From assembly GCA_001692895.1 (NCBI GenBank), contig KV748179.1, positions 4,291,222 to 4,355,221 of the forward strand: DNA of 64,000 nt, given 5' to 3'. Positions 7,831 to 59,345 of this stretch are shown here, piece by piece. Under the pieces are notes generated by a model, which saw only the letters and a program-made list of their open reading frames with translations, had not been told where the DNA came from and searched no databases. The number at the start of each line of letters is the position of its first letter. Position 1 is the first letter of the stretch. The position numbers were made by a program, and so were the translations under genes. The stretch is from Cenococcum geophilum 1.58 (Eukaryota; Ascomycota; Dothideomycetes; Gloniales; Gloniaceae).

Positions 7831-9010
7831 TCATCTCTCATCACTGCCCCCCTTTGGCCCCGCAGGCTTGCTCAGCCTACAACTCGATGCACCCGTATCC
7901 AACTCTACATTACTTGTCGAATACGGCAACGAAAGCTCAAACCACTGGGGCTGAATAACTAGCTTCACTGGCTGCAGTAGCTCTTCTTCCAGGCTCAACC
8001 ACTTCTCTTCCCACAATCTCGTCGAATCAATCAACACCACGCATAACTCTCTCAACCCGCGCAATGACGCAATAATCTGCCACGCACGGATCCACTTCTC
8101 TGTGTCTTCGGGGTATGCGAGCTTGGATTTCGAAGAGAGGGATTTCAGAGCGGGGTAGGTGCGGCGGTAGTAGGGGAGGGCACGGATGTGCCAGCGGAGT
8201 CGGAGGGTACGGATTGTATTGAGTCGGGGCGCTGGAATCCGCTGCGGGAGGTGAAGGAGGTGGGTTACGTGGAGGAGAGAAAATGTATGGGATTTGTAGA
8301 GGGTGGGGATGGCTTCGGAGTACCTGGGGTTGGTTAGATGCCTTTTAGGGAGAATTGATAGCGACAGTGGAGTTTGAGACTTACACCCTTCGACATATCA
8401 TGAGATAACCCAGAATCCATGTCCCCAGCCTTTTGCCTACGTTCCCGCCTGCGAGCACGCGGCAGCTGCATCCGCCCAGCGCGAAGCCCAGATTCCCCTC
8501 CTCGCAGAGAAAATGCTCGAATTTGCCCTTGCCGGCTAGCGTTAAATGAATAACTTCCTTCCCTACGACCAGCTCGTAAATCATCCGTCTCAACTCCAAC
8601 GGTAGCTTGTTGAAAAACAGCGACTGGTCCTGCGGCGAAGTCCTCGCATCAAGCTCTGGATCATGCGTCGAAGTAATACTCAGCGTGCTCCTCCTCCGAT
8701 GAACAGGCGACTTCAAACCCTCCACCCTAGGCTTCAATTGCTTCTTCGAAAAAGCCTTCGATCTCGCGTGTCTCTGCTGCCCCTCACTCGGAATGTCGTG
8801 CGGGACCCAGCGGATAGCGGGTAGACAAGCCAGCATTCGGCCGCGCATTGGGACAGCGACTCCTGAGTCCACCGAGGCCATGGGGGATACAAAAGAGGGA
8901 GGGGGAGAGAGGTGTATGCGTCCGAGTGAGAGGAGGTCAGGTTCTTTATTAGTATCGTAATGCTGCATGCCAAGGCGGGCACTGGAATGATTGGCTGTGG
9001 CAGCTACCAC
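7831..9010 (-). CDS. 2EXR/DUF7730-like fungal protein
   Basis: Exons 9010-8385 and 8323-7831 join in phase across a 61-nt intron (GTAAGT donor, CTAAC branch) to about 372 residues. From about residue 130 it reads FNKLPLELRRMIYELVVG, the hallmark of the large 2EXR/DUF7730 families of filamentous fungi. These resemble degenerate F-box starts. They continue with a Cys-containing core (GGCSCRVLAGG) and, across the exon junction, CRRVYSEAIPTLY, the usual motif of the family. The first 125 residues are low in complexity and basic. The families are abundant in Pezizomycotina, with no firmly assigned function. The Met at 9010 is the first of the frame; a start at the third Met (about 8878) is also possible. 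Confidence 0.75.
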
Positions 9011-9198
9011 TAAAATTTACTGTAATGTATAACCTTGCAGTGCAATACCAAGCTACAAGTGCGGGTCAGCCACTGCCTGCTTGTGGCGGCGATAGTTATC
9101 CTGTACCAAATCACCTTAATTACCGTCAGGTATTACTCCCTTGTGACGGTTACGCGCCTCAACCTGTTCGGTATTGTGCACTAGTTTCTATTTACTAA

Positions 9199-9312
9199 AG
9201 GGTACTGCTAATCATACACTCCCTAATTACTGCGCGTACAATAGACCTATAACCCCTTCCTAAACAGGCCTGCGCAGGTTAGAACATCACGTGTGGTTGA
9301 CTTGTTTGCATC
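9199..9312. repeat. Left terminal inverted repeat of the MULE-like remnant
   Basis: Matches the reverse complement of 10411-10500 in at least three blocks, including AGAACATC[AG]CGTG[TC]GGTTGACTTGTTTGC. About 40 extra bases separate the two outer blocks compared with the right arm. Confidence 0.7.
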
Positions 9313-9377
9313 TGCATCAGTGCGCGACGATCGCGCCCATACCCAAACCAACACCTTACTTTTCCCTACATCTACCA

Positions 9378-9685
9378 TGNCTCTCAACCCACCTCCGTTG
9401 AAGCTGTACGATTGCGCTCAGTTTGCCCTTAATGATATCAACGAGTTCGCCAAGGGGCAGGGCTATACAGTGTCAAAATTCCGCTCAAAAACTGACAAGC
9501 AGTCACCACCAACTGTGCGCAAGATGTGGCTCCGGTGCGCCAAAGGCAACAGCTTCAAAGGGACTGCCCGAAAGCGCCTGACTTGTAAGGCATTGGCAGT
9601 AGTATTCTATAAGCTTACAGCAGTTGTGGGGCCTTGTCCTTTCAAGAGGACTTTGCTGAGGGTCCTTTGGTACATGTTGACCTGA
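9378..9685 (+). pseudogene. FAR1-like DNA-binding domain fragment of a MULE transposase
   Basis: Starts at ATG 9378, whose second codon contains an undetermined base (N at 9380). The reading LYDCAQFALNDINEFAKGQG, then KFRSKTDK and VRKMWLRCAKG, is the FAR1-type zinc-finger start of fungal Mutator-like transposases (the usual pattern ends in WLRCDRGG). After about 75 residues the family signal fades, and the MULE catalytic domain is absent, so this is a truncated relic. Confidence 0.6.
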
Positions 9686-9769
9686 AAATAAGGTCTGAAA
9701 ATGAGGACTCGTGTGTTTATTGAGTGTGGCTCTAAGGCCTCTATATATACACCAGATAGGTGATAAATA

Positions 9770-9792
9770 GAATGACGACGTAGTCGTCATTC
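9770..9792. repeat. Perfect 10/3/10 inverted repeat
   Basis: GAATGACGAC, three bases, then its exact reverse complement. It lies in the interior of the MULE-like remnant. It may be a hairpin or a protein-binding palindrome; no role is known. Confidence 0.6.
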
Positions 9793-10410
9793 GGTAGTGG
9801 AAACAGGTAATTAGACATTCGATGAGACATATGATGGTAAATAGCGGGGTAATGAGACATAGGGTACTAGGTATCACAAACAGTGATAAGTACGTCATTC
9901 TCAGTTCGACAGTACATTTTGAAATCAAGGCTTGATGTGGTATCACCTCCCACGGTGGTGAGCGTCCTGCCATTATCGATAAGGATTGGCCGATTAAACA
10001 AGCTGAATTCGAGCTTGATCGTGAGGCTTCTAATATCGTCCAAATTGTATGTACAGAGTAAGTAGTCCGTGCACGAATACCAGAATCAAAACGCGTTTTG
10101 GGTATGGGCATCAAATTTATCTGATCTGATCGGCTAGACCTTGTCGATAACCTGAGGACCCAAATCATCGTGCTAAGGGATATTGCTATACAAGCCTTAT
10201 TTCTTAGCGTCTAGTCAGTCGATATGTTCCTGCCAGCAACGCCTTGTTTTGCAGAGCGGCATATTGCAGAGCTTGCAGCTAAAGGAAGTCCTCGGCGTGC
10301 GTTAAGGCCTCTTAGGACTATGTTTTGATATTCGCGCACGGACCACTTTACTTATCGATAACGGCAGGCACCACCGTGTGAGGCGGTAGTCATTTTAAAA
10401 GTTTGATTTT

Positions 10411-10500
10411 CGCAAACAAGTCAACCGCACGCGATGTTCTAACATGAACAGGAAGCAGCGAAGCCTGTTTAGGACGATTAGCAGTGCCCCGAACTTTTAG
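10411..10500. repeat. Right terminal inverted repeat of the MULE-like remnant
   Basis: Inverted counterpart of the left arm. It contains CAAACAAGTCAACCGC, GATGTTCTAAC, GCCTGTTTAGGA and GATTAGCAGTGCC in that order. Confidence 0.7.
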
Positions 10501-10754
10501 TCATCCTCGCCCGCAAGGCTGCCTTCGAGACTTTCGTTTTTCCTTCTTTTCCTTCTCTTAGTTTCTCGTGGTTTAACCATTTCTCCTGTGTAGAGCCTAA
10601 CTCTCCTGCTCTGTGAGAGATGCTGAATTACTGAGCGCTAAGACTCCTGTTGAGCAAATTGACGGCACTAAACTCCACGGAGAAACCCTGCGGAACCGAC
10701 CGATACAATTAAAGACACTATCGAACATCTCACGTCTTTGACCTACGAGCGAGT

Positions 10755-13700
10755 ATGTCTAATCCCGACAACTATACCGTCGGATGGATCTGCGCCATAC
10801 AAACGGAGTATGTTGCTGCGCAATCTTTTCTCGACGAAGAGCATGAAAGACCTGAGTTTATGTCTACCAATGACAACAACGACTACACATTAGGCAAGGT
10901 TGGGAAACACAATGTCGTTATCGCCGTCCTGCCCGAAGGGGAGTACGGCATATCCTCTGCAGCAGCCGTCGCAAGAGATATGCTGCATAGCTTTACCAAC
11001 GTCAGAATGGGTCTGATGGTCGGTATTGGCGGCGGTGCACCAGGCCAAAAGCATGATATCCGTCTTGGCGACATTGTAGTTAGCGCTCCTCGCGATGGAA
11101 AGGGTGGCGTGTTCCAGTACGATTTTGGCAAAACTATACAAGACCAGAGCTTCCGATCGACAGGATTCTTAAACCAGCCACCAGCCCTCTTAAGGGCGGC
11201 GGTGAATGGACTCAAGGCCCAGTACGAGAGGAAAGGGCATCGGCTAGAAGAGGCTATTAATAGTGTTCTTGAGGATAATCGAAGAATGCGGCAGAAGTAT
11301 AAGCGACCGGACCGAAGCAGCGATAGGCTATACCATCCCGGGGTCATCCATCCTCCGGGGGATAAAGCAGGCTGTGCGAGTGTCTGTGGCGATGATCCAT
11401 CAAGGTTGATATTACGACTCGAACGAACTGAAGACGATGACAATCCGGCAGTTTACTACGGTCTAATTGCTTCGGCGAACCAATTAATGAAGGACGCTAC
11501 TGTTCGAGATAGACTTACGGCTGAAAAGGACGTTCTGTGTTTTGAAATGGAAGCGGCAGGACTGATGAATCACTTTCCCTGTCTGGTTATTCGCGGTATA
11601 TGCGACTACTCGGATTCCCATAAGAATAAGGAGTGGCAAGGATATGCAGCAATGGCGGCAGCTGCATACGCCAAAGACCTCCTCTACCGAATTGCCCCCA
11701 ATATAGTGGAGGCTGAGAGGAAAATCACTGAGGTTCTTTCTTCTGGTTAGTTACTTTAGTGGACTATAGGAATTATTGTTAACGAAATTCAAGTTAAGAG
11801 AGATGTAAATGAAATGAGTGCTAAGGTTCAAGATGCAAGTAATGCTGTCAAACATTTAGGGTTTGAGCAGAGGCAAGAAAAGATAGACCGTTGGCTGTTG
11901 CCCCCAGATCCCTCAACAAATTACAATAAAGCTCTAGAGCAACGCTACGAAGGCTCAGGCCATTGGTTCTTAGCAAGTAGTGCCTTCACCGAATGGAAGA
12001 CGCGGCGAAGTTCCTTTTTATGGCTCCATGGCATTCCTGGATGTGGTAAGACGATTCTTAGCTCCGCTATCATTAAGAACCTTAATAGTGTCCTATCTTC
12101 CCAGCCTCTCCTCTACTTTTACTTTGGCTTTGCCGATATAGGCAAGCAAACGCTTGAGAGTATGATCCGCTCCCTTATTAGTCAGCTCTACTACAAGCAT
12201 ATAGAGACCTCGCAACAGCTAGATACTCTTTTTTCCTCTTGCGAAGACGGACTTCGACAACTAACATGCCGATTACTTTGCGAGGCCTTCTTGCATATAA
12301 TAGAGCAAGTTGAAGAAGTCTGGCTTGTTCTGGATGCACTTGACGAATGCCGTACAAGGAAAGGACTGTCGACGGAAGGATTGCTATCGTGGATAAGAGA
12401 AGTCCGAAACTCGGAGCAAAGGAACGTCCATCTTCTTGTGACAAGTCGGCCAGAACAGGACATCGAATCTAAAATAATGGAGTTCGCTCATACCGACGAT
12501 GTAGTGCCCATTCAGAGCAACCTTATTACTAATGATATCCGTACGTACGTTCGTGCGAGAGTTAGAGAGGATAATGGTCTTAAGAGGTGGCGATCGCAAC
12601 CGGAAGTCCAAAACGAGATTAAGACCCGACTTATGGAGAAAGTAGATGGAATGTAAGACTAAATAGTCTTATTATTATTAATCCATTATCTATAAGAGAT
12701 GCTCATAGTTGACAGGTTTCGATGGGCTGCGTGTCAGCTTGATGCGCTAGAAAATTGCCTAGAGTATCGCACTCTCCAGAATGCTCTCGCATCCCTCCCG
12801 AAGACGTTGGACGAAACTTATGCCAGGATCCTGCGTGGCATCCCTGAGGAATACAAGCAAAATGCTACAAGAATTCTCCAATTCTTAACATACTCCGAGC
12901 GGCCGCTAAGGATCGAGGAGGCCGTTGACGCAATAGTAGTAGATGCGAAGGCGGATCAACACTTCAATCCAAAATATAGAATGCCTAATCCTTACGAGAT
13001 CTCGTGTTACTGTTCAAGCTTAGTGGTCATAGTGTCCGCAAATGACAAGCCTGTGGAACTTCAATTAGCGCATTTCTCGGTTAAGGAATATCTAACCTCA
13101 AACCGACTTGACAAAGATATCGCGCAAAGCTTTCAGGCGACCGTTGCTAAAGCATCAATTGCGATAGTTTGCCTTGCGTATTTGCTGCACTTAGACTTGG
13201 CACTTCTAATAGTGGAAATCCAAGAGGGATTTCCGTTGGCGCAGTATTGTGCGAAGTATTGGATAACCTACGCCGCAGTGGCTGAAAGTAAGGACGAAAC
13301 ACTGCAAGGCTTCATCAGGGAGTTTTTCTGCTACCACATAAATTCGTATAGGAACTGCTACAGCCTCTATCGCCCGGATTATCCAGGGTTCTTTGGCCCA
13401 GACTTTGGAGAGGGACCAGCTTCAGCGTTATATTATGCATCTTTTGGAGGTCTGGTAAATGCGGTAGAGTACCTGCTAAGTCGAGGAGCCAACGTCCACG
13501 CGCAAGGTGGACGCTATAGTACCGCGCTCCATGCAGCGTCGCATAGAGGCCACGACAAGATCGTCGAGCTGCTGCTAAGCAAGGGCGCCGACGTCCACGC
13601 GCAATGCGGACTCTATGGCACCGCGCTCCAGGCAGCATCGCTTGGAGGCCACGACAAGACCGTTGAGCTGCTGCTGAGCAAGGGCGCCGACGTCCGCGCG

Positions 13701-14414
13701 CGAGATGGAATCTATGGCACCGCGCTCCATGCAGCATCGCTTGGAGACCACGACAAGATCGTCGAGCTGCTGCTGAGCAAGGGTGCCGACGTCCACGCGC
13801 AAGATGGATACTATGGCACCGCGCTCCATGCAGCATCGCTTGGAGGCCACGACAAGATCGTCGAGCTGCTGCTAAGCAAGGGCGCCGACGTCCACGCGCA
13901 AGGCGGACACTATGGCACCGCGCTCCAGGCAGCATCGTTTGGAGGCCACGACAAGACCGTTGAGCTGCTGCTGAGCAAGGGTGCCGACGTCCGCGCGCAA
14001 GGTGGATACTATTGCACCGCTTTCCAGGCAGCATCGTGGGAAGGCCACGGCAAGATCGTTGAGCTGCTGCTAAGCAAGGGCGCCGACGTCCATGCGCAAG
14101 GTGGACACTGTGGCACCGCTCTCCAGGCAGCATCGCAGGAAGGGCACGACAAGATCGTCGAGCTGCTGCTAAGCAAGGGCGCCGACGTCCACGCGCAAGG
14201 TGGAGACTATGGCACTGCGCTCCATGCAGCATGGCTTGAAGGCCACGACAAGGTCGTTGAGCTGCTGCTGAGCAAGGGCGCCGATGTCCACGGGAACTAT
14301 GGCACCGCTCTTCAGGCAGCATCGCGTAGAGGCTACGACAAGATCGTCGAGCTGCTGCTGAGCGAGGACGCCGAGGTCTACGCGCAAGATAGAATATATA
14401 GCACTGCGCCCTAG
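10755..14414 (+). CDS. Fungal NLR-like receptor: nucleoside phosphorylase - NACHT - ankyrin repeats
   Basis: Exons 10755-11745, 11794-12652 and 12716-14414 join in phase (introns 48 and 63 nt) to about 1,182 residues. Residues 9-315 form a PNP_UDP/MTAN-like domain ([11 protein letters not shown] near 86-96, [17 protein letters not shown] near 263-272, [11 protein letters not shown] near 281-291). The NACHT domain follows, with P-loop GIPGCGKT (about 410-417) and Walker B LVLDALDE (about 508-515). A helical region precedes about ten ankyrin units with consensus [31 protein letters not shown] proteins are a known class of fungal STAND/NLR proteins, relatives of heterokaryon-incompatibility and non-self recognition genes; function here is inferred. 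The ankyrin units are nearly identical at DNA level, and the frame ends inside a further degenerate unit where the expected CAG codon is TAG. Transposon remnants flank both sides. Confidence 0.88.
13518..14411 (+). repeat. Homogenised ankyrin-coding tandem array (99-bp unit)
   Basis: About nine consecutive 99-bp units encode GTAL[HQ]AAS...[14 protein letters not shown]. Most differ at only a few positions, clustered at the same two or three sites per unit (after AAS, and in the HAQGG-x-Y turn). The ninth unit lacks 9 nt in the turn (HGNY instead of HAQGGDY). A weaker diverged unit precedes the array at about 13413-13517. Such high identity is expected of repeats kept alike by unequal exchange or gene conversion, and the variable sites are those exposed in ankyrin turns. 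Confidence 0.85.
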
Positions 14415-14482
14415 GCAACATCGCGTAGAGGCCACGAGAGTGAAAGAAGAGAATGGGGAGGCTACTAAGTAAGGGCGCCAAC
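14415..14482 (+). repeat. Degenerate extra ankyrin unit after the stop codon
   Basis: Bases after the NLR stop still resemble an ankyrin unit (ATCGCGTAGAGGCCACGA, then CTACTAAGTAAGGGCGCC) but are frame-broken in the middle. The array was therefore once longer at its 3' end. Confidence 0.65.
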
Positions 14483-14543
14483 AGTTTTAATTATAAAATT
14501 TAATAAAAGACTAAATCTTAACTATATAGTGTAGAAGAGAGTA

Positions 14544-15356
14544 TGGAAGCAGCGGTCAAAAGTTCCTGGCCCCCCTACGCCATAAATGCGCCACCAATAA
14601 CCCACAAAACCGCTTTCTTGGCGTTCCGGATTAGGAAGAAGGCTGGTATAGAAGATAGATTTTGGCTCTCTACGACGAGAGTGTAGATATATGATATTAT
14701 AATAGCCACCTAGTGTGGTGGTGATATATAGGATTACTGCTTCTGCCTATTACCTCGCCCACTACCTCGTTTACGACCTCGTCTACTATCTTGTCTACTA
14801 CCTCGCCTACCACCTTACCGTGGCTTCTTTCCTTTTGATAACTTAGCCTACTGCTTCTATAGCTCCTGCTGCCATCGTAGCTCTTATTAAGGCTTAATAA
14901 ATATTTTATTAAGTAGCTTAATTAGTAGGCGGCGGCGTAGGTTTCGTTATAGCTCTAGAGGCGGGGCTTATAATTTAGGAGGTAGCTATAGAGGCTAGGG
15001 TGGCTCTTAGGGTGGCTCTTTAGATAGTTTATAAGCTTCTTATATCACGAAGATAGCGGTAAGAGTAGCGGTAGCGCTCTTAGCTACTACTATTAGTATA
15101 TGCTTTAGAGCACGCTGCCGTAGCTTTAGCTATAGCTCTTCCTCCCTTTCTTCCTCCTTAATATTAGGTATATCCTCTTAATTATACTACGGAACTTGGT
15201 GTTCTAGTGGCCCTAGTTAACGTAGCTTATCTAATAAGAGTTATATGCCGCAACTCCGTGGTGCGCGCTAAGCATTGCTTACGCTACACTAAGCCACTAA
15301 AGGCTAGCGTACGCCACCATGATAAGGGGGCCAGGAACTTTTGACCGCTGCCTCCG
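14544..15356. mobile_element. 813-bp non-autonomous inverted-repeat element with TA target site
   Basis: The ends are inverted copies (29 of about 30 bases) of GGAAGCAGCGGTCAAAAGTTCCTGGCCCCC, shown here only as the motif GCAGCGGTCAAAAGTTCCTG. TA dinucleotides flank both ends at 14542-14543 and 15357-15358, which fits a Tc1/mariner-type target duplication. The interior has no coding potential and includes short CCTCG/CTACTACC-type repeats. It lies 130 bases after the NLR stop codon. Confidence 0.75.
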
Positions 15357-15436
15357 TAATAGTAAGGTTATAGTAGCCTTATATAATATATTATTATTTT
15401 CTTTCTCTCTATTTTATAGAGGGTTAAGGGGAATAT

Positions 15437-15903: not shown

Positions 15904-16735
15904 TATATTATTCGCCACCCTGATTTCAGCGTATTCCGCGAAGGTCACACGCTCGTTACTGGAAGCTAGGGAATATAAGAGTCACTAGATGGTAATAATA
16001 CTTTCCCGATCTATACTCTTCGTAGGGGGTCAAGCACGCGTACCAACTGATGGAATTTCTTTGTGTGAAAACTCTACTGCGAGTGCTGCTGTGGCTATAC
16101 CCTTGTGGGCCGCTTCTCACCGAGAGGACAGCTGGTAAGAATGCAATTTCGCTAAGGAGTGGACAGTTATAATAATTAAAGCAATATGGTGCTAGATGAG
16201 AATATTACCATATAAGATAGGGGTATCAAAAGCCTGGTATTAACGCATTGAACGCGTGTCCTAAGGTCGCGACGCTTTACTAGACGTGTAAGGTGGAGCG
16301 CCAAGGTGCCTGTTCGTAGATCTAGGTATGTAGACTTTGTTGGAGAAGCTGGTTTCGCTAGCGACTGTAGCAATGTATCGCTAGGTAGCGAGTATCCTTT
16401 ATGCTGCATATAAAGGAGAAGCTAGGTTTGTCAGCAAATATACAAGGGATCCTATAACTTTTCCATTAGAGGTGCGACTGCAACTGGAGGACTATGCAGC
16501 TAGAATACTAGTAAACGCTCCCTACCTTAATCCTTTACCCCCACCCTACTTACCCCCTATCTTACCCGGCATCTTTACTAAAACAGCGCTGCTTACCTCT
16601 AAAACCGGAAAGAGCTTTACTAAAGTAAATACTCGCTCGAGAGTCGAGCCACCTTAAAATCTGCTAAAAACCACTAACTTTAACCATTTATAACTCCACC
16701 CCTATTTAAGATATTTAAATAAAAATAAAAATATA
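15904..16735. other. Inter-element sequence, nothing recognised
   Basis: About 830 bases of mixed composition between inverted-repeat elements. The frames here lack protein character. It may be old repeat sequence. Confidence 0.4.
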
Positions 16736-19203
16736 ACTAACGTATGTGATGGGGTTATAAAGGTGACCCTAGTTATAAAGGTTTTGAACATTAAAATACT
16801 CGAAAATACAAATTTGGTCGCAAATAACCAGTAAACCCTATTTAAAATCACTGCATCATTATTAAGGAGCATTAAAGCCATAAATATATATAATAGAGTC
16901 TATATAAAGTCGATTTTTGGTGTTTTAAAGTTTAACTAACGACCGAGTTTCGCTCCAGATATTGCTAATTAACTCAGGCTCCTTATCTAAGGACTCTTCG
17001 TCGCTTAAATTGCTTATATTATTATCCTCTTACCCTTCCTACGAGTCCTCTGGTAAAGCAGCTTCTTCTATAGCCTTCTTGGCGGTCTTTTAAAGTTGCT
17101 TAATAAGAACTATAGCCGTAGCAGCGGCAGCAGAGGACTCTTCCGCCCGCTTCTGGAGCTTATCCGCGGTTAATTGTTTTAACGTTATATAATAGGCTGC
17201 TATATTAGCCGCTAATCAAGCTTCTTTAGTATGCTTTCTGCGAGCTATATTAGCGGCAGTAAGGGAGTCCTTTTATGCCTTCTTAGCTACCTTTCCTGCC
17301 TCTGCTGCTTCTCTATGGTGAACCTTAGCCAGCTCCTTCGCATTAGCAACCCTTTTCTAGGCTGCCTTTCGGACCTTAACTTACTCCTTAGTAAGCTCTA
17401 CTACCACTTAATAATCCTTCTTAAGCTATTTCCTAGTAAGCGTAGCTTACTCTTTAGCCTTTTAAGTGGCCTCTTTAGTAGCAGTAAGCTCCCTTATTGC
17501 TTCTAAAGTAAGAACTAATTTAGTAGAGAGTACGTTCCGTTTACGCTTCTTCTTAGCCTTTCTCTTCTTAGTATATTGCCAAAGATCGTTGTTTTTAACT
17601 TATATAAGCTTAAGGCCTTCCTCTAAGGATTGTAAGTATTGTATTAACTTTAAAATAACTGCCTCCGTTGCCTCCGGTGTAGTTTCTGGATAAAGGATTA
17701 TATGCGTATACCAAGCTCGAGCGTACTCGCTATCTGGTAGGGAAGGATACATAGGGGAGGATAAGATCGTTACCTCTTTATAATAAGGTGGAGGCGTAGA
17801 TAGCTTAATAGATATAGGCTGTTTAGAGCAGCGCGTAAGGGCTTAATTTAGGTTAAAGGGAAGAAGGCCTATAGCCTTAAAGGCGCTCCTAATTAACTCT
17901 CTAGTATATACCTGCGGCCGAATCTCACCTAGTATCTATAGAAAGTAGTCTCTATTAATACCAGTAATACCGCGCGCCGTATATTTATTAACTTTTAATA
18001 AATAAAGTCGCTTAAGAACTAAAAAGATAACCAGATCTAAGGGCTAAAGAAGGTATATTAAATACGGCGGTAGATAAATTGGTATAATCTTCTTTAACTA
18101 GCAAAACTTAACAAACTTAATATTAACGTAGCTACTATAGCCGTCTATAATTAACAGTTAATAGCTGTTGTATTTTCCGTCTTCTATTATCCTCTCCTAT
18201 ACCTTAGTTTGTTAGGTATAGCGCTTAAAGTGCTCTAGCCACTATACCCTAAGCTCTTAATTTAACTATCTATTTTCGCTTATTGCAATTATAAACTTGC
18301 CTACAGCTTCCTCTACTTCTTGCTATAGCGATTCTATATATTAGCGTCCTTTAAAAATAATAAACGGTGGAATTATGCCCCCTTATATACTAATTAAATT
18401 AATTTATAAAACCCACTCCTAAGAGCCGTTAATTGTCTTAAAGTTAATAACGTTGCCTCTTAATATAACTACTTTAGCGCTATATGCGAAGCCTATAGCA
18501 TAGCCAGTCTCATCTATATTCCATACGTTGGCGTTATTAATATTATACTAAGTCTTTGCATTTAAGTAGTTGGTAAAAAACCTCTTAATTAAAGCAGGAT
18601 TATTGCCAGCAATAGCGCGCTCTAAGCTAATTAATCGTACGTAGTAAGTACGGAGCTCCTCCTGCCGTTTTAGGAAGCCGTATATCTATTTTATACCAAG
18701 TGGTGTAACTTGGGTATAAGGGAGGTTGAGGTTTTCGCGTTGGAGAATGAGTATCACAATTATTCGAACTGTATAGTATCAACATAAAAAGCCAGCTTTA
18801 GCAAGATAAATATAATGTTAAACAACTGCTGCCTCTCCAGCTGGAGTAATACGATACTAATTAATATAGGCAACTTAAGAAGACTGTAATTTGCCTTGGA
18901 GCCGGCGGCGGAAAGTAACTGGGTTAACCTCATAGGCCTTCGCATAAGCTTCGGCGCTTTTATAGAGACTTATTATTCGCCAGGCTATTAAAGCTGCTTA
19001 TAAACGATCTTCTGTATCAAGAGCACGCGGCTAGCGAGGCATAGTAATATGGAGTTTTGTATAGGGAGGTAAGGAGAAAAGTTAATGTGTTGATGTTTAA
19101 AGCGGCAGTATATTTTAGGCAATATGCTAGCCTAAATAGGAAGGCGGTAATATAAAACCTTTATAACTAGGGTCACCTTTATAACCCTATTACATACGTT
19201 ACT
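16736..19203 (-). mobile_element. Pogo/Fot1-like Tc1-mariner transposon, RIP-degraded
   Basis: A 2,468-bp element with inverted ends of about 46 bp (A[CG]TAACGTATGT, then GGGTTATAAAGGTGACCC and TAGTTATAAAGGTTTT), flanked by TA at 16734-16735 and 19204-19205. The minus strand holds a decayed transposase. Base composition is strongly TpA-rich, and many codons look converted to stops, consistent with RIP. Both ends are intact enough that a related active element could in principle act on it, but this copy codes for nothing. Confidence 0.85.
17800..19042 (-). pseudogene. Decayed pogo-type transposase (psq HTH plus DDE_1)
   Basis: Begins at ATG 19042. The reading PRALDTEDR, SLYKSAEAYAKAYEVN and PVTFRRRLQGK matches the psq helix-turn-helix of Fot1/pogo transposases. 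Further on, NVWNIDETGYAIG is the first DDE_1 aspartate motif, and KLIVDGYSSY fits the second (normally DGHGSH). Stops occur throughout, including the fourth codon (CGA/CAG to TAG type) and many TAA/TAG at former CAA/CAG codons. This is a dead copy. Confidence 0.8.
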
Positions 19204-19205
19204 TA

Positions 19206-19802
19206 TAGAGTTAGAAATTCTTCATTTTAAAATTTTTTTTTAAATTAATATAATAGTTTTTTAAAATACTAATTTTTAATATTTATTATAAAAATATTTA
19301 TAATTTAATTAAATATATTTTAAAAGGTTTAAATTTAAAATTTTAGCTAAATATCTGTAACGTAGCCCGCCTCTACGTCGCCATACGGCCAAAAAGACTG
19401 AGAGTGCTTGCGAACTTGTCGCAAGCGCGGCGGGACCTAATATATATACTCTTACAATATCTTTAAAGTTGGTTAGATTTTGACGGTGGCTCGAGCAAGT
19501 GGCTGGCTTGATCGGGTGGCTAATACGTTAAGCAGCTGCCCCCTTTGCTTTTCCGGCTTTATCGAAACATGACTTCCCCTCAGCATTCCCTTCCCTTGCC
19601 AGCTTCTCTCGCCCGTCATCATGTATCAACTATCCCAATTATTATACTACATCATCCAACTGCATTTTTAGCACCCTACATATCCTGAGATCACTTCCAA
19701 GAGCTCTTAACTTCTTGCTATTCTCGCACCTTACCCCGTAGTCCCCTGCGGATATCTCACTCTCTTGGAAACCTCGAAGGTTCACGCGCAGGCAGAAAGG
19801 GA
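19206..19802 (+). promoter_or_regulatory. Upstream region of the TRP-channel gene
   Basis: The first part (to about 19380) is extremely AT-rich and belongs with the transposon neighbourhood. Normal composition returns by about 19460 and runs to the start codon. No defined operator was recognised. Confidence 0.35.
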
Positions 19803-22324
19803 ATGTCGCGACCACTACACGTCTCCCATCCATCGCACCGCAGCTTTTCTGAGGCATTGCGCGCGGTCCGATCAAGAGAGGAGCAAGAGACTTTGCTTGG
19901 CGATGAGGAGCAAGCTGATCCAGATGGCTGCTTAAGAGGCAACGCAGGTCCGAGGCCGATATTTGTACCAGATCCGCATGCCGGCCTGCCGGTTTATACG
20001 ACGATTCACAGGTGAGAGCTCACTTTTTAGTGTTGAACATTGGAGCTATTCTTCATATAAACAATGCCTTGTTGACTCTATTATTGACCGTATTATCCGA
20101 TAGGATTCGTCGGGTTATCCTTGCTAGCATTGGTAAGTCAAAATTATTGCATATCAAATCCCTTGAACAGGCACTAATAAATGTATAGATGATCCATATA
20201 CTACCGACCAATTGAAAGAACCTCGGATGAATATCCTCATTGTAAAACCTCTTGTGGATCGGCTTTACGATCCAAGTGACGTTTCAATAAGTATGTATGG
20301 ACCTTTTGTTCCAAGACTATTTCATCTGTGGCAATATTCTAGCTACCGAAGGCTTTAATGATAATATCGCCCTTGACGAAGGATTTCTTTATAGGACCGT
20401 TAGCGTGATACAATGGAGACAGTAACTTACACCTTCCCGGACGCTGCAACATATCGAACTCCTTTTAGTTTTCTAGCATCTTGAAATGCAGCACGCTATT
20501 TCATATTTTTGTTCCATCATTTAGTGCGAGTCTTGGTGCAAAAACGATCCCAGCGATATTTTCTGAGTGGATATAGAGTATACGGAGTGTACTTGGAGTT
20601 TCTAATGCAAACTAGTATACTGCCTTCTCGTCAACAGAGTCCAATTCCTCCGCGAGCAATCCTTCCAAGCGCACCATCAAACCGTAAATGTGACTCGGGC
20701 CAACCTCTGCGAGTTAGTGGCATCAAAAATGCTACGGCGATACGATGAAGACAATTCTGGACGGCCGGGTCTGCTCCTCCTCGCGAACATTCTCGTTGGT
20801 GGGTTTGAGCCATTCCAAAACTGTCCCTCAGAAGTTGCTCAAGAAAATCGGCACGCCCTGGCTTGGTCGCTACAGAAGCGTGGCGGTTACGAAGGGAAGT
20901 TGACGTCGTTGGAAATTGCCATTATCTCGGAGAGCAAGCAATTTCTTAGCAGCTCAGCTTGCCAAAAGGTGGTAGATGCTGTGTATCGCGGACGGGTCGT
21001 CTACACTCCCAACGCGTTCATTGATATACTACCGGATCACTACAAGCACAAGCCTATCGCACTTTACGACCCTAAGAAAGCACCCCTTTTGAACCAGTAC
21101 CGGCTGATCGTTCCTCGCTCGCGTAATATCATCGAGGTCTGTCAATTTATTGTTCTCTTAATCCTATATTGCGTCTGTATGATGAACCGAGATCATACGC
21201 AGTTCACCGGCTACGAAATCTGCTTCACGGTATATGCTGCTGGCTGGGTTCTCGATGAATTTGCTTCGATGCTTGAGCATGGCTGGCACGTCCATACGCA
21301 AAATCTCTGGTCTTTCCTCGACATCACTTTCGTAATCATCTATACGCTCTACCTCATCATTCGCCTTCGCGGTTGGTTCACAGGTAATATCGAAGAAGGC
21401 CGGCAGGCTCTCGACATCCTCTCCATTGCCGCACCTATTCTCCTGCCCCGTCTAGCATTCAATCTTATGCCCGAGAATATGCTCTTCATTTCACTCCGCG
21501 CTATGATGGCCGACTTCACAGCCCTCAGCCTCATCGCCGTATGGTGCTTCGCCGGCTTTCTCCTCGCCATGAAGTGGCTCAGCATGGGCAACAACGGCGT
21601 CGAGCCAGACGATTCCCCCGACCCCCTCACCATCTCGAAATGGATGCTCTGGATCTGGTTCGGGCTGGACGGGACGGGGATCCAAGAAGCGCCATCCTTC
21701 CACGCGATCCTCGGGCCCGTCCTCATGGTGACCTACGCCTTCCTCGGCAACACGCTGTTCCTGACGGTGCTGGTGTCCATCCTCTCCAATACCTTCTCCA
21801 AGATCGCTGCCGACGCCACCGCCGAGATCCAGTTCCGCCGCGCCGTGCTGACCTTCGAGGGCGTCAAGTCCGACGCCCTCTTCGCCTACCGGCCCCCCTT
21901 CAACATCCTCGCCTTGCTCATCCTCCTCCCGCTCAAATTCGCAGCCTCCCCGCGCTGGTTCCATAAAGTAAACGTCGCCGCTGTGCGTGTGCTCAACGCC
22001 CCCATTCTGCTCGCCATCTCACTGTATGAGCGCCGCCGGCTGTGGAAGTCCAAGAAGCGGGCTCCCTTGGGCCCCTTGAAGCGCAGTAAGTGGTTGTTCT
22101 TGAACTTCTCGAGCTTAAACGTCCATGGCGATCTGCAGGCCGTGTTCGATACCGATCCGCCGCAGAGCGTGCTCGATCAGATCGAGGAGGAGGATGAGTT
22201 GGAGGATGCGATCTTGGAGAATAGTTTTGCCGCGACGGCGAATAAGGATTTCGTGGACAGGGAATTGAGCCCCGGGAGTAATGTGCAGAGGCGGAGGAGG
22301 TTCTCGAGTGTGTGGCAGGGATGA
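19803..22324 (+). CDS. YVC1: TRP-type vacuolar cation (calcium) channel, YVC1-like
   Basis: Exons 19803-20011, 20104-20132, 20189-20290 and 20616-22324 join in phase to about 682 residues. The N-terminal cytosolic domain carries family landmarks (YTTIHRIRR, LVNRVQFLREQS, NVTRANLCELVASK, LLLANILVGGFEPFQN, AFIDILPDHYKHKPI). Six or more membrane segments follow, from IIEVCQFIVLLILY to GPVLMVTYAFLGNTLFLTVLV, with a pore-like WMLWIWFGLDGTG stretch before the last. The C-terminus has an acidic cluster (QIEEEDELEDAILE), which in yeast YVC1 is linked to calcium sensing. By homology it releases Ca2+ from the vacuole. The third intron is 325 nt, far longer than the others (56-92 nt). The symbol denotes family resemblance to the yeast gene. 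Confidence 0.85.
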
Positions 22325-25678: not shown

Positions 25679-27124
25679 ATGTCCACACCGCTGGCCGTCC
25701 CAGCGTCTCCCAGTCCCTCATCAAAACGCTCTAGATCCCGCGAAAGCACTCGCTCCTCGGCCGCCGCATCTGTAAATACACCATCCGTAACCGGACCATC
25801 CGCAAGCTTCCCCTCTCTTATAATACCTTCACCCTCGCAAACACCGTCGTCTGTGGAGCACTCGCCTCGGGACTCCACACCATACCCCGCGTTTCTGCGG
25901 CAGAGCAAATCAGGCAGGTAGACATGTGGCCTATAACAGAAAGGTTTGACTGCAGGCACCCTGTACTGACTGGGGAATTGCAGATGTCCATACTAAATTC
26001 ACCGACCTGGAATGGGAGCAACGCAAGCGACTTCTACAGGGCACGCAGACCACGGACCCGCAAGGTCCACCCTCGCAATGGGCAAGGGTCAGCGGGGAAG
26101 CTGTCATGAACAGGAACAGATATGCGAATGTGGACCCGTACCTTAACAATCGGATACGCTTGAAGGTGCCCGAAGGGTATAGCGACTACATAAATGCATC
26201 GCCGATAGTGCTGCGGAACACGAAATCAGACACGGTAACGAACTTCATCGCAACGCAGGTACGTCCACAGAGCAGCCTAAAAGGGCCACTCCATGTCCCC
26301 CCGCAAATGGGCAAACGCGCTCACCTTCCCAATAGGGCCCCAAAGCCGAAATAACCTCGCACATCTGGCGCATGCTATGGCACGAGGCAGCCTCACCCTC
26401 GGTCATAATAATGCTCACGCAGACGCACGAATCCGGGCGCGAGAAATGCCACCCCTACTTCCCGCCGTCGCCCTCCAGCCCCACGCTAACCGTCAACTCG
26501 CACGACGAGTTCGCCGACGGCTTCACGGCGACCGTCACGCTGCTGTCGCTGACCGAGGACGACGCCGCGCGCTGCACCGTCCGCGAGCTCGAGATGCGCA
26601 CGCCCGACGGCGACGCCAAGATCGTCTGGCACCTGCTGTTCGCCGGCTGGCCTGACTTCCTGGTGCCCGAGGGCGCCGACCGCGCCGCGCTGCTGCAGCT
26701 GCTCGCGCTGTCGCAGGCCAAGAACGCCGCGCACCCGGAGAGCCCGCGCGTCGTGCACTGCAGCGCGGGCGTCGGCCGCTCCGGCACCTTCATCGCGCTC
26801 GACTGGCTGCTGCGCGAGCTGGAGGAGGGCAGCCTGGACGCTCTTGACGCCGCTGACGACCCCGTGGCGGAGATCGTGGATCGTCTGCGCTGCCAGCGCA
26901 TGATGATGGTCCAGGGCGAGCAGCAGTTCTCGTTTCTGTACGACGTGCTGCGCGAGAAATGGCGCGAGCGTTGGCGGGAGCTGCACCTCGGCATTGATGC
27001 AGATGCCGAGGGCGAGGACGCCGGCGAGGGGGTGAATGGGGAGGGTGAGGAGGGTGCAAGTGCGGGGGCGGAGGTGGCGGAGGTGCAGGCGCAGGTGGAC
27101 GATGGTGGGGAAGGCACGTCGTGA
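25679..27124 (+). CDS. Protein tyrosine phosphatase
   Basis: Three exons, 25679-25913, 25984-26258 and 26336-27124, give about 432 residues. After a Ser/Pro-rich N-terminus come KFTDLEWEQRKR, NRNRYANVDPY (phosphotyrosine loop region), YINAS, FIATQGP, the WPDF loop (Asp near 277) and the active site HCSAGVGRSG (Cys near 312, Arg near 318), then a QQFSFLYDVL motif. All elements of a classical PTP catalytic domain are present in order. The first intron works in frame only if it uses a GC donor (CAG|GCAGGT) with AG at 25982-25983; the nearby GT at 25918 gives the wrong phase. The C-terminus is Glu/Gly-rich. The catalytic exon is markedly GC-rich. It probably acts on MAPK or other phosphotyrosine proteins, as in fungal Pyp-type enzymes; the target is not identifiable. 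Confidence 0.83.
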
Positions 27125-27618: not shown

Positions 27619-30600
27619 CTAATCCTCACACAAATCCCTCAACAACCCCACCCTACAAGCCTCCCAATCCGCCACCCCCATCCCATACGTCGCCTCAAAC
27701 GCCGCAATCCCCAGCTGACCTAAAAATGGTCTCAGCACTCTCCCCGCCAGCTCTGAACGCGTCATGGCCCTCACATCGGCACCCTCCTCGCCTGCCTGCA
27801 CCGCCTCGAGCAGCGGCTCTAGGAACGGCTGCCGCAGCGGCGTTTCCACGCCAGGGTGTTGTGGCGAGAGGCTAGCATGGTGCGCGGCCACACGCGACGT
27901 CGGGGTGCCAGCGGCCGCGAGCGCCTCGGCGACCTCGTCGGTGAGCGCGGTGGCGGACCAGGCGGCCGGGCGGTAGACGGCATCGATGGTGTCGGCGACG
28001 AAGAGCCAGGCGTGCAGCTGGAAGTCGTCGGGGGCGAGCACGACTAGCGTGTCGAGCAGCTTGCAGGCCTGCAGCACTGCGGCGTTGGAGTACGTGTCGC
28101 GGTTGTCGGCGTCCGGGAGGAGCGACGTCAGCGCCGCGGAGAGCTCCGCAGTCACAATGGGCCAGAGTGGCGCGAGGTGCACGGGTGAGATCGTCAGGAG
28201 CAGGGCGCGGAGGAGCATGAAGAGTTCAGCGCGGGTGGTCGAGGAGGGCGAGGAGGCGGGCGTGGCGGTGAGGAGTTCTACGAGTTTTTCGGAGAGGGAG
28301 GGGAGCGTGGGTGTGAATGTGTCTTCAGGGGCGGCGAGGAGGAGGAGCGAGATGCGGCGGAGGGTGAGTTGTGTTTTGCGGTCTGTCTCCTGGCGAGCTG
28401 ATGCCGCACCGACGCCGAACATGATCCCAGCGGTTGTTGGAGCGGACAGGCGTGACAGGAGTTCTGGGAGGCGGTCTTTATCTGTTAACGTCCATTGAGC
28501 CAGTATTGGGAGCCAGGAGGACGTAATGAGAGGCAGAGGCGTGCTGAAGAAACGAGGGTCATTGAAAGCGTCCGCGACGTCCTTTTTCCACGCCTTATTG
28601 TTTTGTGCAACTCGGGTAAGCTGGTAGATCAAGTCGAGGGTAGACTTGGTCACGTTCTCAGGAAAGGCTTTAGAACGGAAAGCGGGCCCTATGATGTTGG
28701 TTGAGATGCTTGTAGCGGCGTTGGCTACACGATCATTCTCCACGAGAATGAGTTGGAGACTGGGCATTATAGATGTAAGAATTGCCACGACATCTACAGG
28801 TTTCTTTATATTTCCGCCGCTTGCTATGCTTGATGCTTTTTCTACTGCGGCAACTTGTGATGGTTCCTGTAGGAAGCTCATGGATCGAGTGGTGAATACT
28901 GCAGTTAGAAGCCTAGCGAAGAGGTCCTGAAACAGAATTAGCAGGAAACTTTGAAAAGCTGAGGTTTTGACATACCCCAAGCTCCCTTCTCATTTTCCTT
29001 TGCTCTCCGAAATTTGTATTATCCACCTTTTGCCCCAATACCGCTGTAAATTCGAGCAGTGTTGGGAGAATTTGTCGATGCGGAAGAGGATTGGCAAGAA
29101 CATCCCGCAGGAAAATCATACAGTCAGGCCATATCTCATCCATAGCATCGTCTTCTAATGACCTGGTGTAGTCAACGAGAAAGCTGACTAGATCCGTGTC
29201 TGATAAATCCGAAGTCAATGTGGACATCCTCATAGGATCGAGAGCGTTAGGATTTGTTCGGCTATACACCGCGTTGAATATGGCTGGAATAGTGTGCTTT
29301 GGCTTGGACCCGTTAAGAACATTTAGTAGGCCCATCACCGAAGTAGCTCTGGAATCTGTTCTAGAAGATTGGCACCACAACACGGCTAAGGTTTCTAGGC
29401 ATTCTAACGCTTCGGCAGCAAACAGATGCTCTAAAATACGTCGAGCACGATTTCGCATTCGCAAGGATGTGTATCCAAATGATGCAAGAGATGTGGGATC
29501 TGGCTTGCTGCTATTCGAACCGTATCCGCCCCACGACCAAATGGAGAAGCAAATACGAACAGTATCTTGAAAACATAAGAGAACCGTTAGCCTACTGTTG
29601 GCGGTAGGTGTCCGCGTCTGATTTATTTCCGATGAGAAAACACCGGAGACCATGTTCCCAAAGAAGCCTTGTGGTTGTTCAGGTGATTTTGCCGTTGCAG
29701 TCTTAGTTTCTTGCAGGACAAGGCGATCATGAGCCTTTGCGAGAATTCGCTCAAGGCCATTCATCAACGATACCAAGGTTGATTCAGGTGAAATCTGGAC
29801 ATCCCCGACGGGCTGCTTGAAAGTTGATCTAAGCTGCTCGAAGGCTTGGTCAATTTGAGTACAGAAACATTCCACGAGCGGGATTAAATTTTGAAAAATA
29901 GCATCAGCGAAGAGCGGTAGAACTTCCGCAAGAAACTTAACCCAGTCGTCGAGAACTAGGCGGCTTGATGGTGAGGCAAATCCAGCTCGCAGACATTCGA
30001 CGAGCTGGGGCGGCGGAGGTATGGGAGGAGATGAAGGCTCTTCATTTAGAGGCTTCTCCATTATTAGAGACAGTCTTGAAGGCGCTCCGACGTCTCTTGA
30101 CTGTTTTCTCTGATGTCCTGAAGGTGGTCGCTGGAGAGGTGGACTAAGAAGCCGGAGTTTCAGTGCTGCAAGTATGGCCTCGAGAATTAGACTCTGCAAG
30201 GAGGGACTTGACATTTTAAGCCGTGCCATCAAAGGTACTTCCAGCTCGAGGGCTTTGAGGGGTGCAGCATAGGGACTTTGAAATACCTGCAACACAATCG
30301 ATACGGCAGTCCGATATAATTCTTCAATATGAGGTTTCTGCTGTGAATGGTCTGCTCTACTATTGACCGAAAGAGCCTTCATAGATGTCCGTACAATCCA
30401 TTCTTGCAAGGTCATCTTTTCAGCGTCAGAAACCGTTTCAGTGATCTGCGGTGCCGCCTCCTCGGCTAGAGTTAACCACGTATAACTTGAGGGCCACCGC
30501 AAGATGTTCAACACATGCTTCAGGTAATAAAGACATTCTTTAGTGTCGTCGACAGAAGCAGACGCACGCGACTTACCTCCAGCCTGGCTGGGGGCTAACG

Positions 30601-50339: not shown

Positions 50340-51106
50340 TATAGAGCTTAATTGCTATACTAGTAGGTATGGATTTACTTTACAAATCCTATACCTTTGT
50401 TACACTTTACAGTAGGGGGTAAGCTTTAGGCAGAGCCTTATACAAAGCTTTAGTAGAGTCTTATATAAAGCTTTATGTAGAGCCTTATATAGAGCTATAT
50501 ATAAATATATAGACGTACAGATATATAGATGTGTAGACGTATAGATATATAGATATACTTTAAGTAGAGCTTTAAGTAGAGCTTTAAGCTTAAGGGGGAG
50601 ACCCCCTTAGACCCCCCCTACGCACTACGTACTCTATTTACTATATAGGCAGAGCTCTTATAGAGGCTTTAGTAGAGCTTTTATAGAGCTTTAATAGAGC
50701 TTTATATAGAGCTTTAGTAAAGCTTTATATAGAGCCTTATATAGAGCTATATATAGGCGTTCGCTCGGGCAATTAACTACGGAGACGTTTATATAGACGA
50801 TTATATAGGCAATTATAAAGCCGTTTATAAACAATTATAAGACTTCCTAGTATATTAGAGCTGCGTATTAGTAGAGCTTTAAGCAGAGCTTTAAGCTTAA
50901 GGGAGAGACCCCCTTAGACCCCCCCCCTACGCACTACGTGCTATATTTACTACGTAGGCAGAGCTCTTATAAAGGCTTTAGTAGAGGCTTTAGTAGAGCT
51001 TTTAATAGAGCCTTTATAGAGCTTTATATAGAGTTTTATATAAAGCTTCTATAGAGCTATATATAGGCGTATGAGGTATAGACGCCCGTATAGGTAATTA
51101 ATTATA
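50340..51106. repeat. GAGCTTTATATA-type repeats with a 186-bp direct duplication
   Basis: Imperfect units of AGAGCTTTA[TG]ATA fill the region. Within it, 50575-50760 and 50882-51070 are direct copies sharing AGCTTTAAGCTTAAGGG, GAGACCCCCTTAGACCCCCC and CGCACTACGT. The same 12-base unit builds the array at 58150-58925. No coding role. Confidence 0.65.
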
Positions 51107-51525
51107 TATTACGAACGCTTTAAGTACAATGTTATAACTACTTAGAGAAGAGTCGGAGGAAGCTAGTTGGTTAATACAAGTACGGTCTAGGATGGAACCC
51201 ATAGAACCATATGATAAGGAATAGTAAGTAAAGTTACGTAAGGTAATCTATATAATCTATATAATCTATAAGATCTATAATAAAGCAAATAGAGCAGATA
51301 GAGTAGACAGAGCAACGACTTTCTTAGGAGTACGGTTGTGTATTTAAGGACCCTTAGTCCCTACCTAGATAGTTCCTTCCTTATAGTAATTCTTAGAATA
51401 TAATTAGAGTTAATCTATTAGGTAACCACTCTACTAGTTATTATTACGTTATTAACTTATCTATTCCTATATACCTAGCCTATTAATAGAACCCACTGTA
51501 GTATAAGCTATAAGGTTCCGTTATA
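51107..51525 (+). repeat. Left LTR of the plus-strand gypsy fossil
   Basis: About 420 bp. It aligns along its whole length with the reverse complement of 53567-53986, and both share TATTAC[GA]AACGC at the start and CTATAAGGTTC[CT]GTTATA at the end. Ends are consistent with a decayed TGTTAC...GTAACA. Confidence 0.75.
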
Positions 51526-53566: not shown

Positions 53567-53986
53567 TATAACAGAACCTTATAGCTTATACTATAGTGGG
53601 TTCTATTAATAGGCTAGGTATATAGAAATAGATAAGTTAATAACGTAATAATAACTAGTAGAGTAGTTGCCTAATAGATTAACTCTAATTGTATTCTAAG
53701 AATTACTATAAGGAAGGAACTATCTAGGTAGGGATTAAGGGTCCTTAAATACACAACTATACTCCTATAAAATCCTTCTTATACGTAATATACGTATTAT
53801 ACATATTATATATAGGCGTATAATATATATACCGTGTATACTATATATAATATTATATAACTTACTTACTATTCCTTATTATATAGTTTTACGGGTTCTA
53901 TTCTAGACTATACTTATATTAACTAACTAGCTTCTTTTAACTCTTCTCTAAGTAGTTATAATATTATACTTAAAGCGTTTGTAATA
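53567..53986 (-). repeat. 3' LTR of the minus-strand gypsy fossil
   Basis: 420 bp, inverted relative to 51107-51525. Its outer edge abuts the gag region of the plus-strand copy, which marks the insertion point. Confidence 0.75.
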
Positions 53987-58974: not shown

Positions 58975-59345
58975 ATCCTAATAGGACAATCAGAAAATAC
59001 TAGTTTCCTATTAGGAGCGCATTAGAATAGTAGGGTCCTATTAGGAGCGCATTAGGATAATAGGGTCCTATTAGGAGCCTATTAGGACGACTAGGACGAT
59101 TAGGACGTTTAGGACGTTTAGGATATTAGAACGTTTAGGACGTTTAAGATAATCAGGAAAATCAAAATCCTGCTAGGAGCCTATTAGGAGCCTATCAGGA
59201 CGACTAGGATAATTAGGACGTTCAGGACGTTTAGAACATCAGGACGTTTAGGACATTCAGGACATTTAGGACAATTAGGAAAATCAAAATCCTGCCAGAA
59301 GCCTGTTAGGAGCCTATTAGGACGATTAGGACCTCTAGGAAAATC
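58975..59345. repeat. AGGACGTTT-type repeats, right edge of the block
   Basis: Imperfect TTAGGACG and CCTATTAGGAGC units, partly arranged in longer duplicated segments (AAAATCAAAATCCTG occurs three times). Related in motif and orientation to the AGGACC repeats at the left edge. Confidence 0.7.

What the first reader, a model, noticed from the sequence alone, without database searches (positions are those of the whole stretch)
10755..14414. Complete NLR-type receptor with a homogenised ankyrin array in a transposon-lined locus
The sequence shows a PNP domain, a NACHT with intact Walker A and B, and about nine 99-bp ankyrin units that are nearly identical at DNA level and differ mainly at a few exposed codons. 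From fungal NLR work it is known that such repeat arrays evolve by concerted exchange and vary between strains at self/non-self loci. I infer this is an allorecognition or immune-type gene with a rapidly changing ligand surface.
Basis: partly seen in the sequence, partly recalled or inferred. Interest (0 to 1): 0.8.

Follow-up and report, generated by a model that had tools for sequence, protein, structure and literature searches.

The report
Fungal PNP-NACHT-ankyrin immune-type receptor gene
This is an intact-looking fungal NOD-like receptor gene whose similar ankyrin repeats vary mainly at three positions each; the gene type and its way of evolving are already described in other fungi, so it is a good new example rather than a new kind of system.

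Summary
The gene is real. Three exons (10755-11745, 11794-12652, 12716-14414) encode 1182 aa: PNP_UDP_1, then NPHP3_N/NACHT, then ankyrin repeats, as predicted. The array has one degenerate and nine similar units (mean pairwise identity 87% DNA, 77% protein). The TAG at 14412 lies inside a decayed further unit, so the array's 3' end is worn. Variation concentrates at codons 2, 12 and 13 of the 33-codon unit (ankyrin positions 3, 13, 14): pN/pS is 5.4 there, 0.42 elsewhere. Nine arrays of this genome show the same three codons as most variable on average. 91 of 93 units are closest to a unit of their own array, as concerted evolution predicts. Transposon-like elements flank the gene; RIP-type composition marks the right-hand ones and one sister copy, not this gene. 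PNP and NACHT histories conflict: relatives share one or the other, with the joint at or just past intron 1. Architecture, repeat behaviour and domain reassortment match published fungal NLRs (Podospora Pa_3_8560). Most likely an NLR that harms its own cell through a PNP nucleosidase, probably acting on ATP (inferred). An allorecognition role is possible but untested: no second strain was readable.

The parts
10755..11745 (+). Exon 1: start codon and PNP_UDP_1 effector domain (Pfam stretch 10782-11639); E18, E266, D284 match the nucleosidase catalytic residues
   Evidence: equivalence to E. coli MTAN E12/E174/D197 recalled, the last two also seen in the alignment to 4jos
11746..11793 (+). Intron 1, 48 bp (GTTAGT...TTAAC...CAAG), contains in-frame stops; DNA similarity to the C11 (1.09 Mb) and C16 (1.53 Mb) paralogs ends at 11751
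11794..12652 (+). Exon 2: linker and NACHT (NPHP3_N) NTPase; Walker A 12030-12053, Walker B 12321-12350
12653..12715 (+). Intron 2, 63 bp (GTAAGA...ACAG)
12716..13409 (+). Exon 3, first part: winged-helix-like stretch (GPIID_WHD, 22.6 bits, below its cut-off of 27; about 12855-13124) and linker
13410..13508 (+). Ankyrin unit 0, degenerate first repeat (52-60% DNA identity to the nine others)
13509..14390 (+). Nine similar ankyrin units: seven of 99 bp at 13509, 13608, 13707, 13806, 13905, 14004, 14103; one of 90 bp at 14202-14291 with an in-frame 9-bp deletion; one of 99 bp at 14292-14390
14391..14414 (+). Start of a further unit, ended by TAG at 14412-14414 where the nine units carry CAG or CAT
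14415..14482 (+). Untranslated decayed remainder of that unit; the alignment to the C116 sister gene runs to 14482
9269..10452 (.). DNA-transposon-like element with 41-nt inverted ends (88% complementary); carries a nested repeat of about 240 bp (about 9675-9911) with other copies at 79-100%; no RIP-type composition
14542..15358 (.). Stretch bounded by 36-nt inverted repeats (92% complementary), RIP-type composition
16732..19207 (.). 2.5-kb element with 54-nt inverted ends (94% complementary); copies elsewhere, best 93% identical; RIP-type composition

Best explanation
A fungal NOD-like receptor of the PNP_UDP/NACHT/ANK class. Inferred mechanism: the ankyrin solenoid binds a ligand, mainly through ankyrin positions 3, 13 and 14 of each repeat; binding releases the NACHT domain to bind ATP and oligomerise; the clustered PNP domains then act as a nucleosidase, most likely cleaving ATP, and kill or arrest the cell compartment. 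Shown here: domain order, intact Walker motifs and catalytic residues, array-private repeats, excess replacement variation at three codons, absence of RIP-type composition, reassortment of PNP and NACHT at or near intron 1. Inferred: ligand binding, oligomerisation, ATP as substrate, cell death.
For: Pfam order. E18, E266, D284 kept in 9 of 9 distinct stop-free copies in which all three could be read; the Asp is Asn in 3 of 3 stop-bearing copies. PNP stretch hits a PADLOC 'PN-superfamily' effector at 1.8e-13. Window pN/pS 5.42 at three codons against 0.42 at the other 30. Site test on 77 units of seven other arrays gives beta>alpha at the same codons, p = 0.0015, 0.032, 0.016; with 74 units after a register filter p = 0.0031, 0.043, 0.025. 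Codon 2 is the most variable in 8 of 9 arrays and ties for first in the ninth (after filtering 7 of 9 and two ties); codons 2, 12, 13 rank first to third by mean in both. 91 of 93 units (88 of 89 after filtering) are nearest a unit of their own array. Array model matches designed ankyrin proteins best in the PDB (6mol_A, TMq 0.73). Composite RIP index of the gene's parts -0.12 to -0.81.
Against: On the window's nine units alone no codon passes 0.05 (p 0.079, 0.071, 0.061). For 33 codons tested, only codon 2 of the pooled set comes near a Bonferroni limit, and not after filtering. The test ignores recombination, which can inflate it. At the three codons pN/pS in other arrays is about 3.3 (C11), 2.5 (C1), 3.6 (C61) but only 1.8 (C21), 1.4 (C12), 1.3 (C8) and just under 1 (C23). 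The decayed last unit could weaken the receptor. NCBIfam's nearest PNP models are mostly MTA/SAH nucleosidases, all far below cut-off, so the ATP substrate is not shown. No expression or strain data.
Confidence: 0.72

Rival explanations
1. It is specifically a heterokaryon-incompatibility (allorecognition) gene: alleles differ between strains and fusion of unlike strains triggers cell death.
For: Related genes have this role or are candidates for it: A. fumigatus hetA (PNP_UDP, with NB-ARC in one allele) and the NACHT-ankyrin candidate at hetE; Botrytis Bcvic1, a NACHT-ankyrin gene, is cited there (PMC11138114, passages). The array behaves like published allorecognition arrays.
Against: The same pattern is expected for any ligand-binding NLR. 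[quoted passage not shown] No SNARE-type partner was recognised, but only 19 of the 61 ORFs of 130 aa or more listed were scanned for that.
Confidence: 0.2
2. The PNP domain is an MTA/SAH-type nucleosidase making or destroying a small signal, not an ATP-depleting killer.
For: The best solved sequences (4jos and others) and NCBIfam models are MTA/SAH-type nucleosidases; Dyrka et al. predicted this for Podospora NLR PNP domains (PMC4986451).
Against: Best PDB match only E 0.0012; NCBIfam scores far below cut-off. Reviews report PNP-family immune effectors as ATP-cleaving (PMC10197012, PMC11249213, PMC12881547, passages), and the domain hits a PADLOC effector model.
Confidence: 0.25
3. The gene is a decaying copy kept by chance.
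For: Stop inside a decayed repeat. Sister loci C116, C30 and C80 carry stops in the PNP stretch, and the arrays of C12, C8 and C1 have unit steps that are not multiples of three (3 of 6, 6 of 9, 2 of 20; none in C11 (2.84 Mb) of 17, C61 of 9, C23 of 8).
Against: About 1180 codons open across all domains, catalytic and Walker residues kept, the only indel within the nine units is an in-frame 9-bp deletion, and pN/pS is 0.42 at the other 30 codons.
Confidence: 0.08
4. The repeats are simply a recent tandem amplification with no selection on the variable codons.
For: Neighbouring units tend to be more alike than the most distant ones (lag 1 0.880, lag 8 0.808, though lag 3 is 0.882).
Against: Synonymous differences among units are substantial (pS 0.17) and variation sits at the codons that also vary most in other arrays. 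32 of 78 informative site pairs fail the four-gamete test, against simple duplication, although there is no distance trend and recurrent change can do the same.
Confidence: 0.05

Closest known systems
Podospora anserina Pa_3_8560 and Pa_2_8180, PNP_UDP/NACHT/ANK NLRs (Dyrka et al. 2014, PMC4986451; sections 8, 13, 17 and passages seen)
   Same: Same three-part architecture; ankyrin units of similar length with high internal conservation; for Pa_3_8560 positive selection at five positions, variable sites (one exception) on the concave face in inner helix and beta-hairpin/loop.
   Different: Unit number polymorphism across strains was shown there (7 to above 16); here one allele is readable. I made no direct sequence comparison with these genes.
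Chaetomium globosum gi116208038 (PNP_UDP/NACHT/ANK, 21 repeats; PMC4986451 section 17)
   Same: Same architecture and reported location of variation.
   Different: More repeats; not compared by sequence here.
Podospora HNWD genes het-d and het-e (PMC12222747 and PMC4986451, passages)
   Same: Tandem repeats kept alike by concerted evolution, with variation at ligand-face codons.
   Different: WD40 propellers instead of ankyrin; known allorecognition genes; exchange between loci is reported there, whereas here 91 of 93 units are nearest their own array.
Bacterial Detocs PNP effectors (PMC11249213, PMC10197012, passages)
   Same: PNP-superfamily effector in a defence system.
   Different: Detocs is a three-gene bacterial system; ATP cleavage was not tested here.

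Membership tests
Fungal NLR (STAND) proteins | Central NACHT or NB-ARC NTPase with Walker A and B | tested here: met
   NPHP3_N 9.8e-42 and NACHT 2.9e-13, both over cut-off; motifs intact
Fungal NLR (STAND) proteins | C-terminal WD40, TPR or ANK superstructure repeats | tested here: met
   Ank 5.3e-70, ten stretches; model matches ankyrin solenoids
Fungal NLR (STAND) proteins | N-terminal effector domain of a known class | tested here: met
   PNP_UDP_1 39.7 bits against cut-off 25.1
High-internal-conservation NLR repeats (Dyrka et al. 2014) | Similarity of 0.85 (T-REKS PSIM) over at least 100 aa | tested here: inconclusive
   Consensus similarity 0.854, or 0.845 with gaps as mismatches; own calculation, not T-REKS (method read)
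High-internal-conservation NLR repeats (Dyrka et al. 2014) | Repeats closer within the array than to other loci (concerted evolution) | tested here: met
   Window 9 of 9 units nearest own array; 86.8% within against 72.4-79.5% to eight other arrays
High-internal-conservation NLR repeats (Dyrka et al. 2014) | Positive selection at particular codons | tested here: inconclusive
   Window alone p 0.06-0.08; pooled other arrays p 0.0015-0.032 (filtered 0.003-0.043) at the same codons; window pN/pS 5.42
High-internal-conservation NLR repeats (Dyrka et al. 2014) | Repeat number polymorphism between strains | not testable with these tools
   Only the window's own genome was readable
Heterokaryon-incompatibility (het) genes | Allelic difference triggers rejection on fusion | not testable with these tools
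   Needs strains and crosses
PNP-family immune ATP nucleosidases | Catalytic Glu/Glu/Asp of the nucleosidase fold | tested here: met
   E18, E266, D284; the latter two aligned to 4jos, the first by motif position, recalled
PNP-family immune ATP nucleosidases | Cleaves ATP | not testable with these tools
   Enzyme assay needed; single-sequence fold of the domain failed (pLDDT 36)

The most novel reading that the evidence does not exclude
Intron 1 is a recurrent recombination joint: effector exons and NACHT-ankyrin bodies are traded among paralogs at the exon 1/exon 2 border while the ankyrin face diversifies locally, giving two separate levels of receptor diversification in one RIP-active genome. 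The C11 (1.09 Mb) and C16 (1.53 Mb) genes share the window's PNP exon (77% aa; DNA similarity stops at 11751, in intron 1) but carry a NACHT of another clade (29% and 25%); the C8 (1.94 Mb) and C23 genes share its NACHT (74% and 67%; DNA similarity starts at 11901) but carry a distant PNP (45% and 49%).
Probability: 0.3. Interest if true: 0.5.

Novelty: new member of a known kind. Interest (0 to 1): 0.33.

Why it matters
One genome shows a whole published scheme at once: an NLR whose effector can be swapped, a repeat array that stays private and self-similar, and three codons per repeat that carry much of the replacement variation. An array without RIP-type composition, next to RIP-type elements on its right and with a RIP-hit sister gene elsewhere, makes the conflict between genome defence and NLR amplification testable in this species.

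Tried and rejected
Rejected: two separate genes or frame breaks at 11750 and 12656 (introns explain both; paralog C12 needs splicing). No second allele was found in the assembly (best other copies 78-81% DNA). Led nowhere: single-sequence fold of the PNP domain (pLDDT 36); one paper search pairing Cenococcum geophilum with NLR terms, a guess at the organism from genome size, gave no paper with that name among the eight listed. The organism is not identified.

Superseded: (first site test); its null model was badly optimised and some p values were too small. Units dropped before the counts: those with a stop, an N, or under 0.72 identity to the window consensus; 93 units of nine arrays remained. 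On checking I saw that a few of the 93 hold indels and are partly out of register, so repeats the counts with a filter (at least 22 of 33 residues as in the array's consensus, and most of codons 3-7 and 26-30). It kept 89 of 93 and also dropped one real window unit (14292), one unit each of C12, C8 and C61; results hold, with slightly weaker p values. The pooled tests left out the window and the RIP-hit C116 array; C12, C8 and C116 were not tested alone. The PNP/NACHT comparison used 9 chosen loci out of the 78 and 126 match rows.

Full report
The observation. Reading 10500-15100 and the ORF list gives three open stretches, all in one frame, separated by short stop-bearing gaps. Both gaps look like canonical small introns: 11746-11793 (48 bp) and 12653-12715 (63 bp). 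Spliced, the gene gives 1182 aa before its stop. The C12 paralog (2.52 Mb) has its three exons in different frames and joins at matching residues, which supports both introns. Pfam gives PNP_UDP_1, NPHP3_N/NACHT and Ank in that order. The tandem array is clear (TRF score 1275).

The array. One degenerate unit (13410) is followed by nine similar ones, the eighth short by 9 bp in frame. Mean pairwise identity is 86.8% at DNA (81-95%) and 77.4% at protein level; without codons 2, 12 and 13 DNA identity is 89.7%. Consensus similarity is 0.854, or 0.845 with gaps as mismatches, right at the 0.85 cut-off of Dyrka et al.. The reading frame ends at TAG 14412, at a codon that is CAG or CAT in the nine units; decayed array sequence follows, and the alignment to the C116 sister gene runs to 14482. 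So the domains are complete but the last repeat is lost.

Where the units vary. In the nine units codon 2 shows seven amino acids through seven codons that all end in C; codon 12 shows six amino acids and codon 13 three. pN/pS is 5.42 at these three codons and 0.42 at the other 30. A site-by-site codon test that I wrote gives beta>alpha at these codons in the window, none below 0.05 (p 0.079, 0.071, 0.061); on 77 units from seven other arrays p is 0.0015, 0.032 and 0.016. After removing units partly out of register, 74 units give 0.0031, 0.043 and 0.025. Only codon 2 of the unfiltered set is near a Bonferroni limit for 33 codons. Single arrays are mixed: C11 (2.84 Mb), C1 and C61 each give two of the three codons with p from 0.0095 to 0.09; C21 gives none; C23 gives only codon 31. 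Averaged over nine arrays the effective number of residues is highest at codon 2 (5.3), then 12 (3.1) and 13 (2.7), then 1.8. Codon 2 is first in 8 of 9 arrays and ties with codon 31 in C23; after filtering it is sole first in 7 and ties in C8 and C23. In standard ankyrin numbering (recalled) these are positions 3, 13 and 14, which are among the randomised positions of designed ankyrin binders (recalled). Dyrka et al. place the variable sites of Podospora Pa_3_8560, with one exception, on the concave face in inner helix and beta-hairpin/loop. My single-sequence model of the array (mean pLDDT 70, pTM 0.68; the other four models 39-49) shows helix pairs; codons 12-13 lie at the end of the first helix of a unit, and codon 2 at its start or just before it. 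I computed no surface exposure. Its best PDB matches are designed ankyrin proteins.

Concerted evolution. All 9 window units, and 91 of 93 over nine arrays, have their nearest relative in their own array (88 of 89 after filtering); window within-array identity is 86.8% against 72.4-79.5% to the others. 32 of 78 informative site pairs fail the four-gamete test, without a distance trend, so exchange among units is likely but recurrent change is not excluded.

Paralogs and module exchange. The genome (177 Mb, 162 contigs) gives 86 NACHT matches over the cut-off, 126 match rows to this NACHT exon and 78 to this PNP exon (some genes give several rows; counts are lower bounds). DNA similarity to the C11 (1.09 Mb) and C16 (1.53 Mb) loci, about 80%, runs from 10771-10773 to 11751 and stops; similarity to C8 (1.94 Mb, 81%) and C23 (71%) starts at 11901. 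Protein identities agree. PNP: window to C11 and C16 77%, to C8 45%, to C23 49%. NACHT: window to C8 74%, to C23 67%, to C11 29%, to C16 25%. The C11 and C16 genes also have NPHP3_N and ankyrin repeats. So effector and receptor bodies have been traded near intron 1. Reassortment of fungal NLR domains is already published (PMC4986451); the joint at or near intron 1 is what these data add, and I made no literature search for that point. Note that the array called C11 is another locus (2.84 Mb).

RIP and flanks. Compared with the window gene, the C116 sister shows 449 of 540 transitions in the C-to-T/G-to-A direction; the window-C12 pair, as a comparison, 205 of 390. Composite RIP index: C116 0.96; the window gene's parts -0.12 to -0.81; right-hand elements 1.26, 0.60 and 0.99; left element -0.23, so not RIP-type; 51-56 and 59-64 kb 1.42 and 1.36. 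Elements with inverted ends lie at 9269-10452, 14542-15358 and 16732-19207; parts of the first and most of the third have copies elsewhere. Further out are a class 3 lipase (595-1410), a DUF7730 gene (7831-9016, minus), a YVC1-like channel (20606-22324), a tyrosine phosphatase (26336-27124) and DOP1 (27619-32935, minus).

Effector. E18, E266 and D284 are kept in 9 of 9 distinct stop-free copies where all three could be read; D284 is Asn in all three stop-bearing copies read, C30, C116 and C80. The domain hits a PADLOC PN-superfamily effector (1.8e-13) and, far below cut-off, mostly MTA/SAH nucleosidase models. Reviews seen in passages describe PNP-family effectors as immune ATP nucleosidases (PMC10197012, PMC11249213, PMC12881547). 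ATP cleavage here is inference.

Verdict. A well-preserved member of the known PNP_UDP/NACHT/ANK class of fungal NLRs, with the known evolutionary behaviour.

Noticed in passing
window 51000-56000 and 59000-64000: AT-rich blocks (GC 0.27, composite RIP index about 1.4) with many short tandem repeats between 50.4 and 59.4 kb; look like RIP-degraded repeat DNA.
   Followed up: partly
L010, L011, L021 (C12, C8, C1 arrays): Sister ankyrin arrays contain unit steps that are not multiples of three (3 of 6, 6 of 9, 2 of 20). Many are one-base changes, so assembly error and true decay cannot be told apart.
   Followed up: partly
window 9675-9911: A repeat of about 240 bp nested in the left element, with 15 other places at 90-100% identity (one of them partial; 40 of 395 candidates scored): probably a recently active small element.
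   Followed up: partly
L015/L014 (C30:112523-118853): A PNP-NACHT relative whose match to the window breaks at 12178/12228 with over 500 bp of extra sequence in between; possibly an insertion in the NACHT. It also carries a stop in the PNP stretch.
   Followed up: no
L059 307-3501 (C11:1089306-1092500): Open frame of at least 1065 aa with 21 Pfam Ank stretches, belonging to the gene whose PNP exon resembles the window's but whose NACHT does not.
   Followed up: partly
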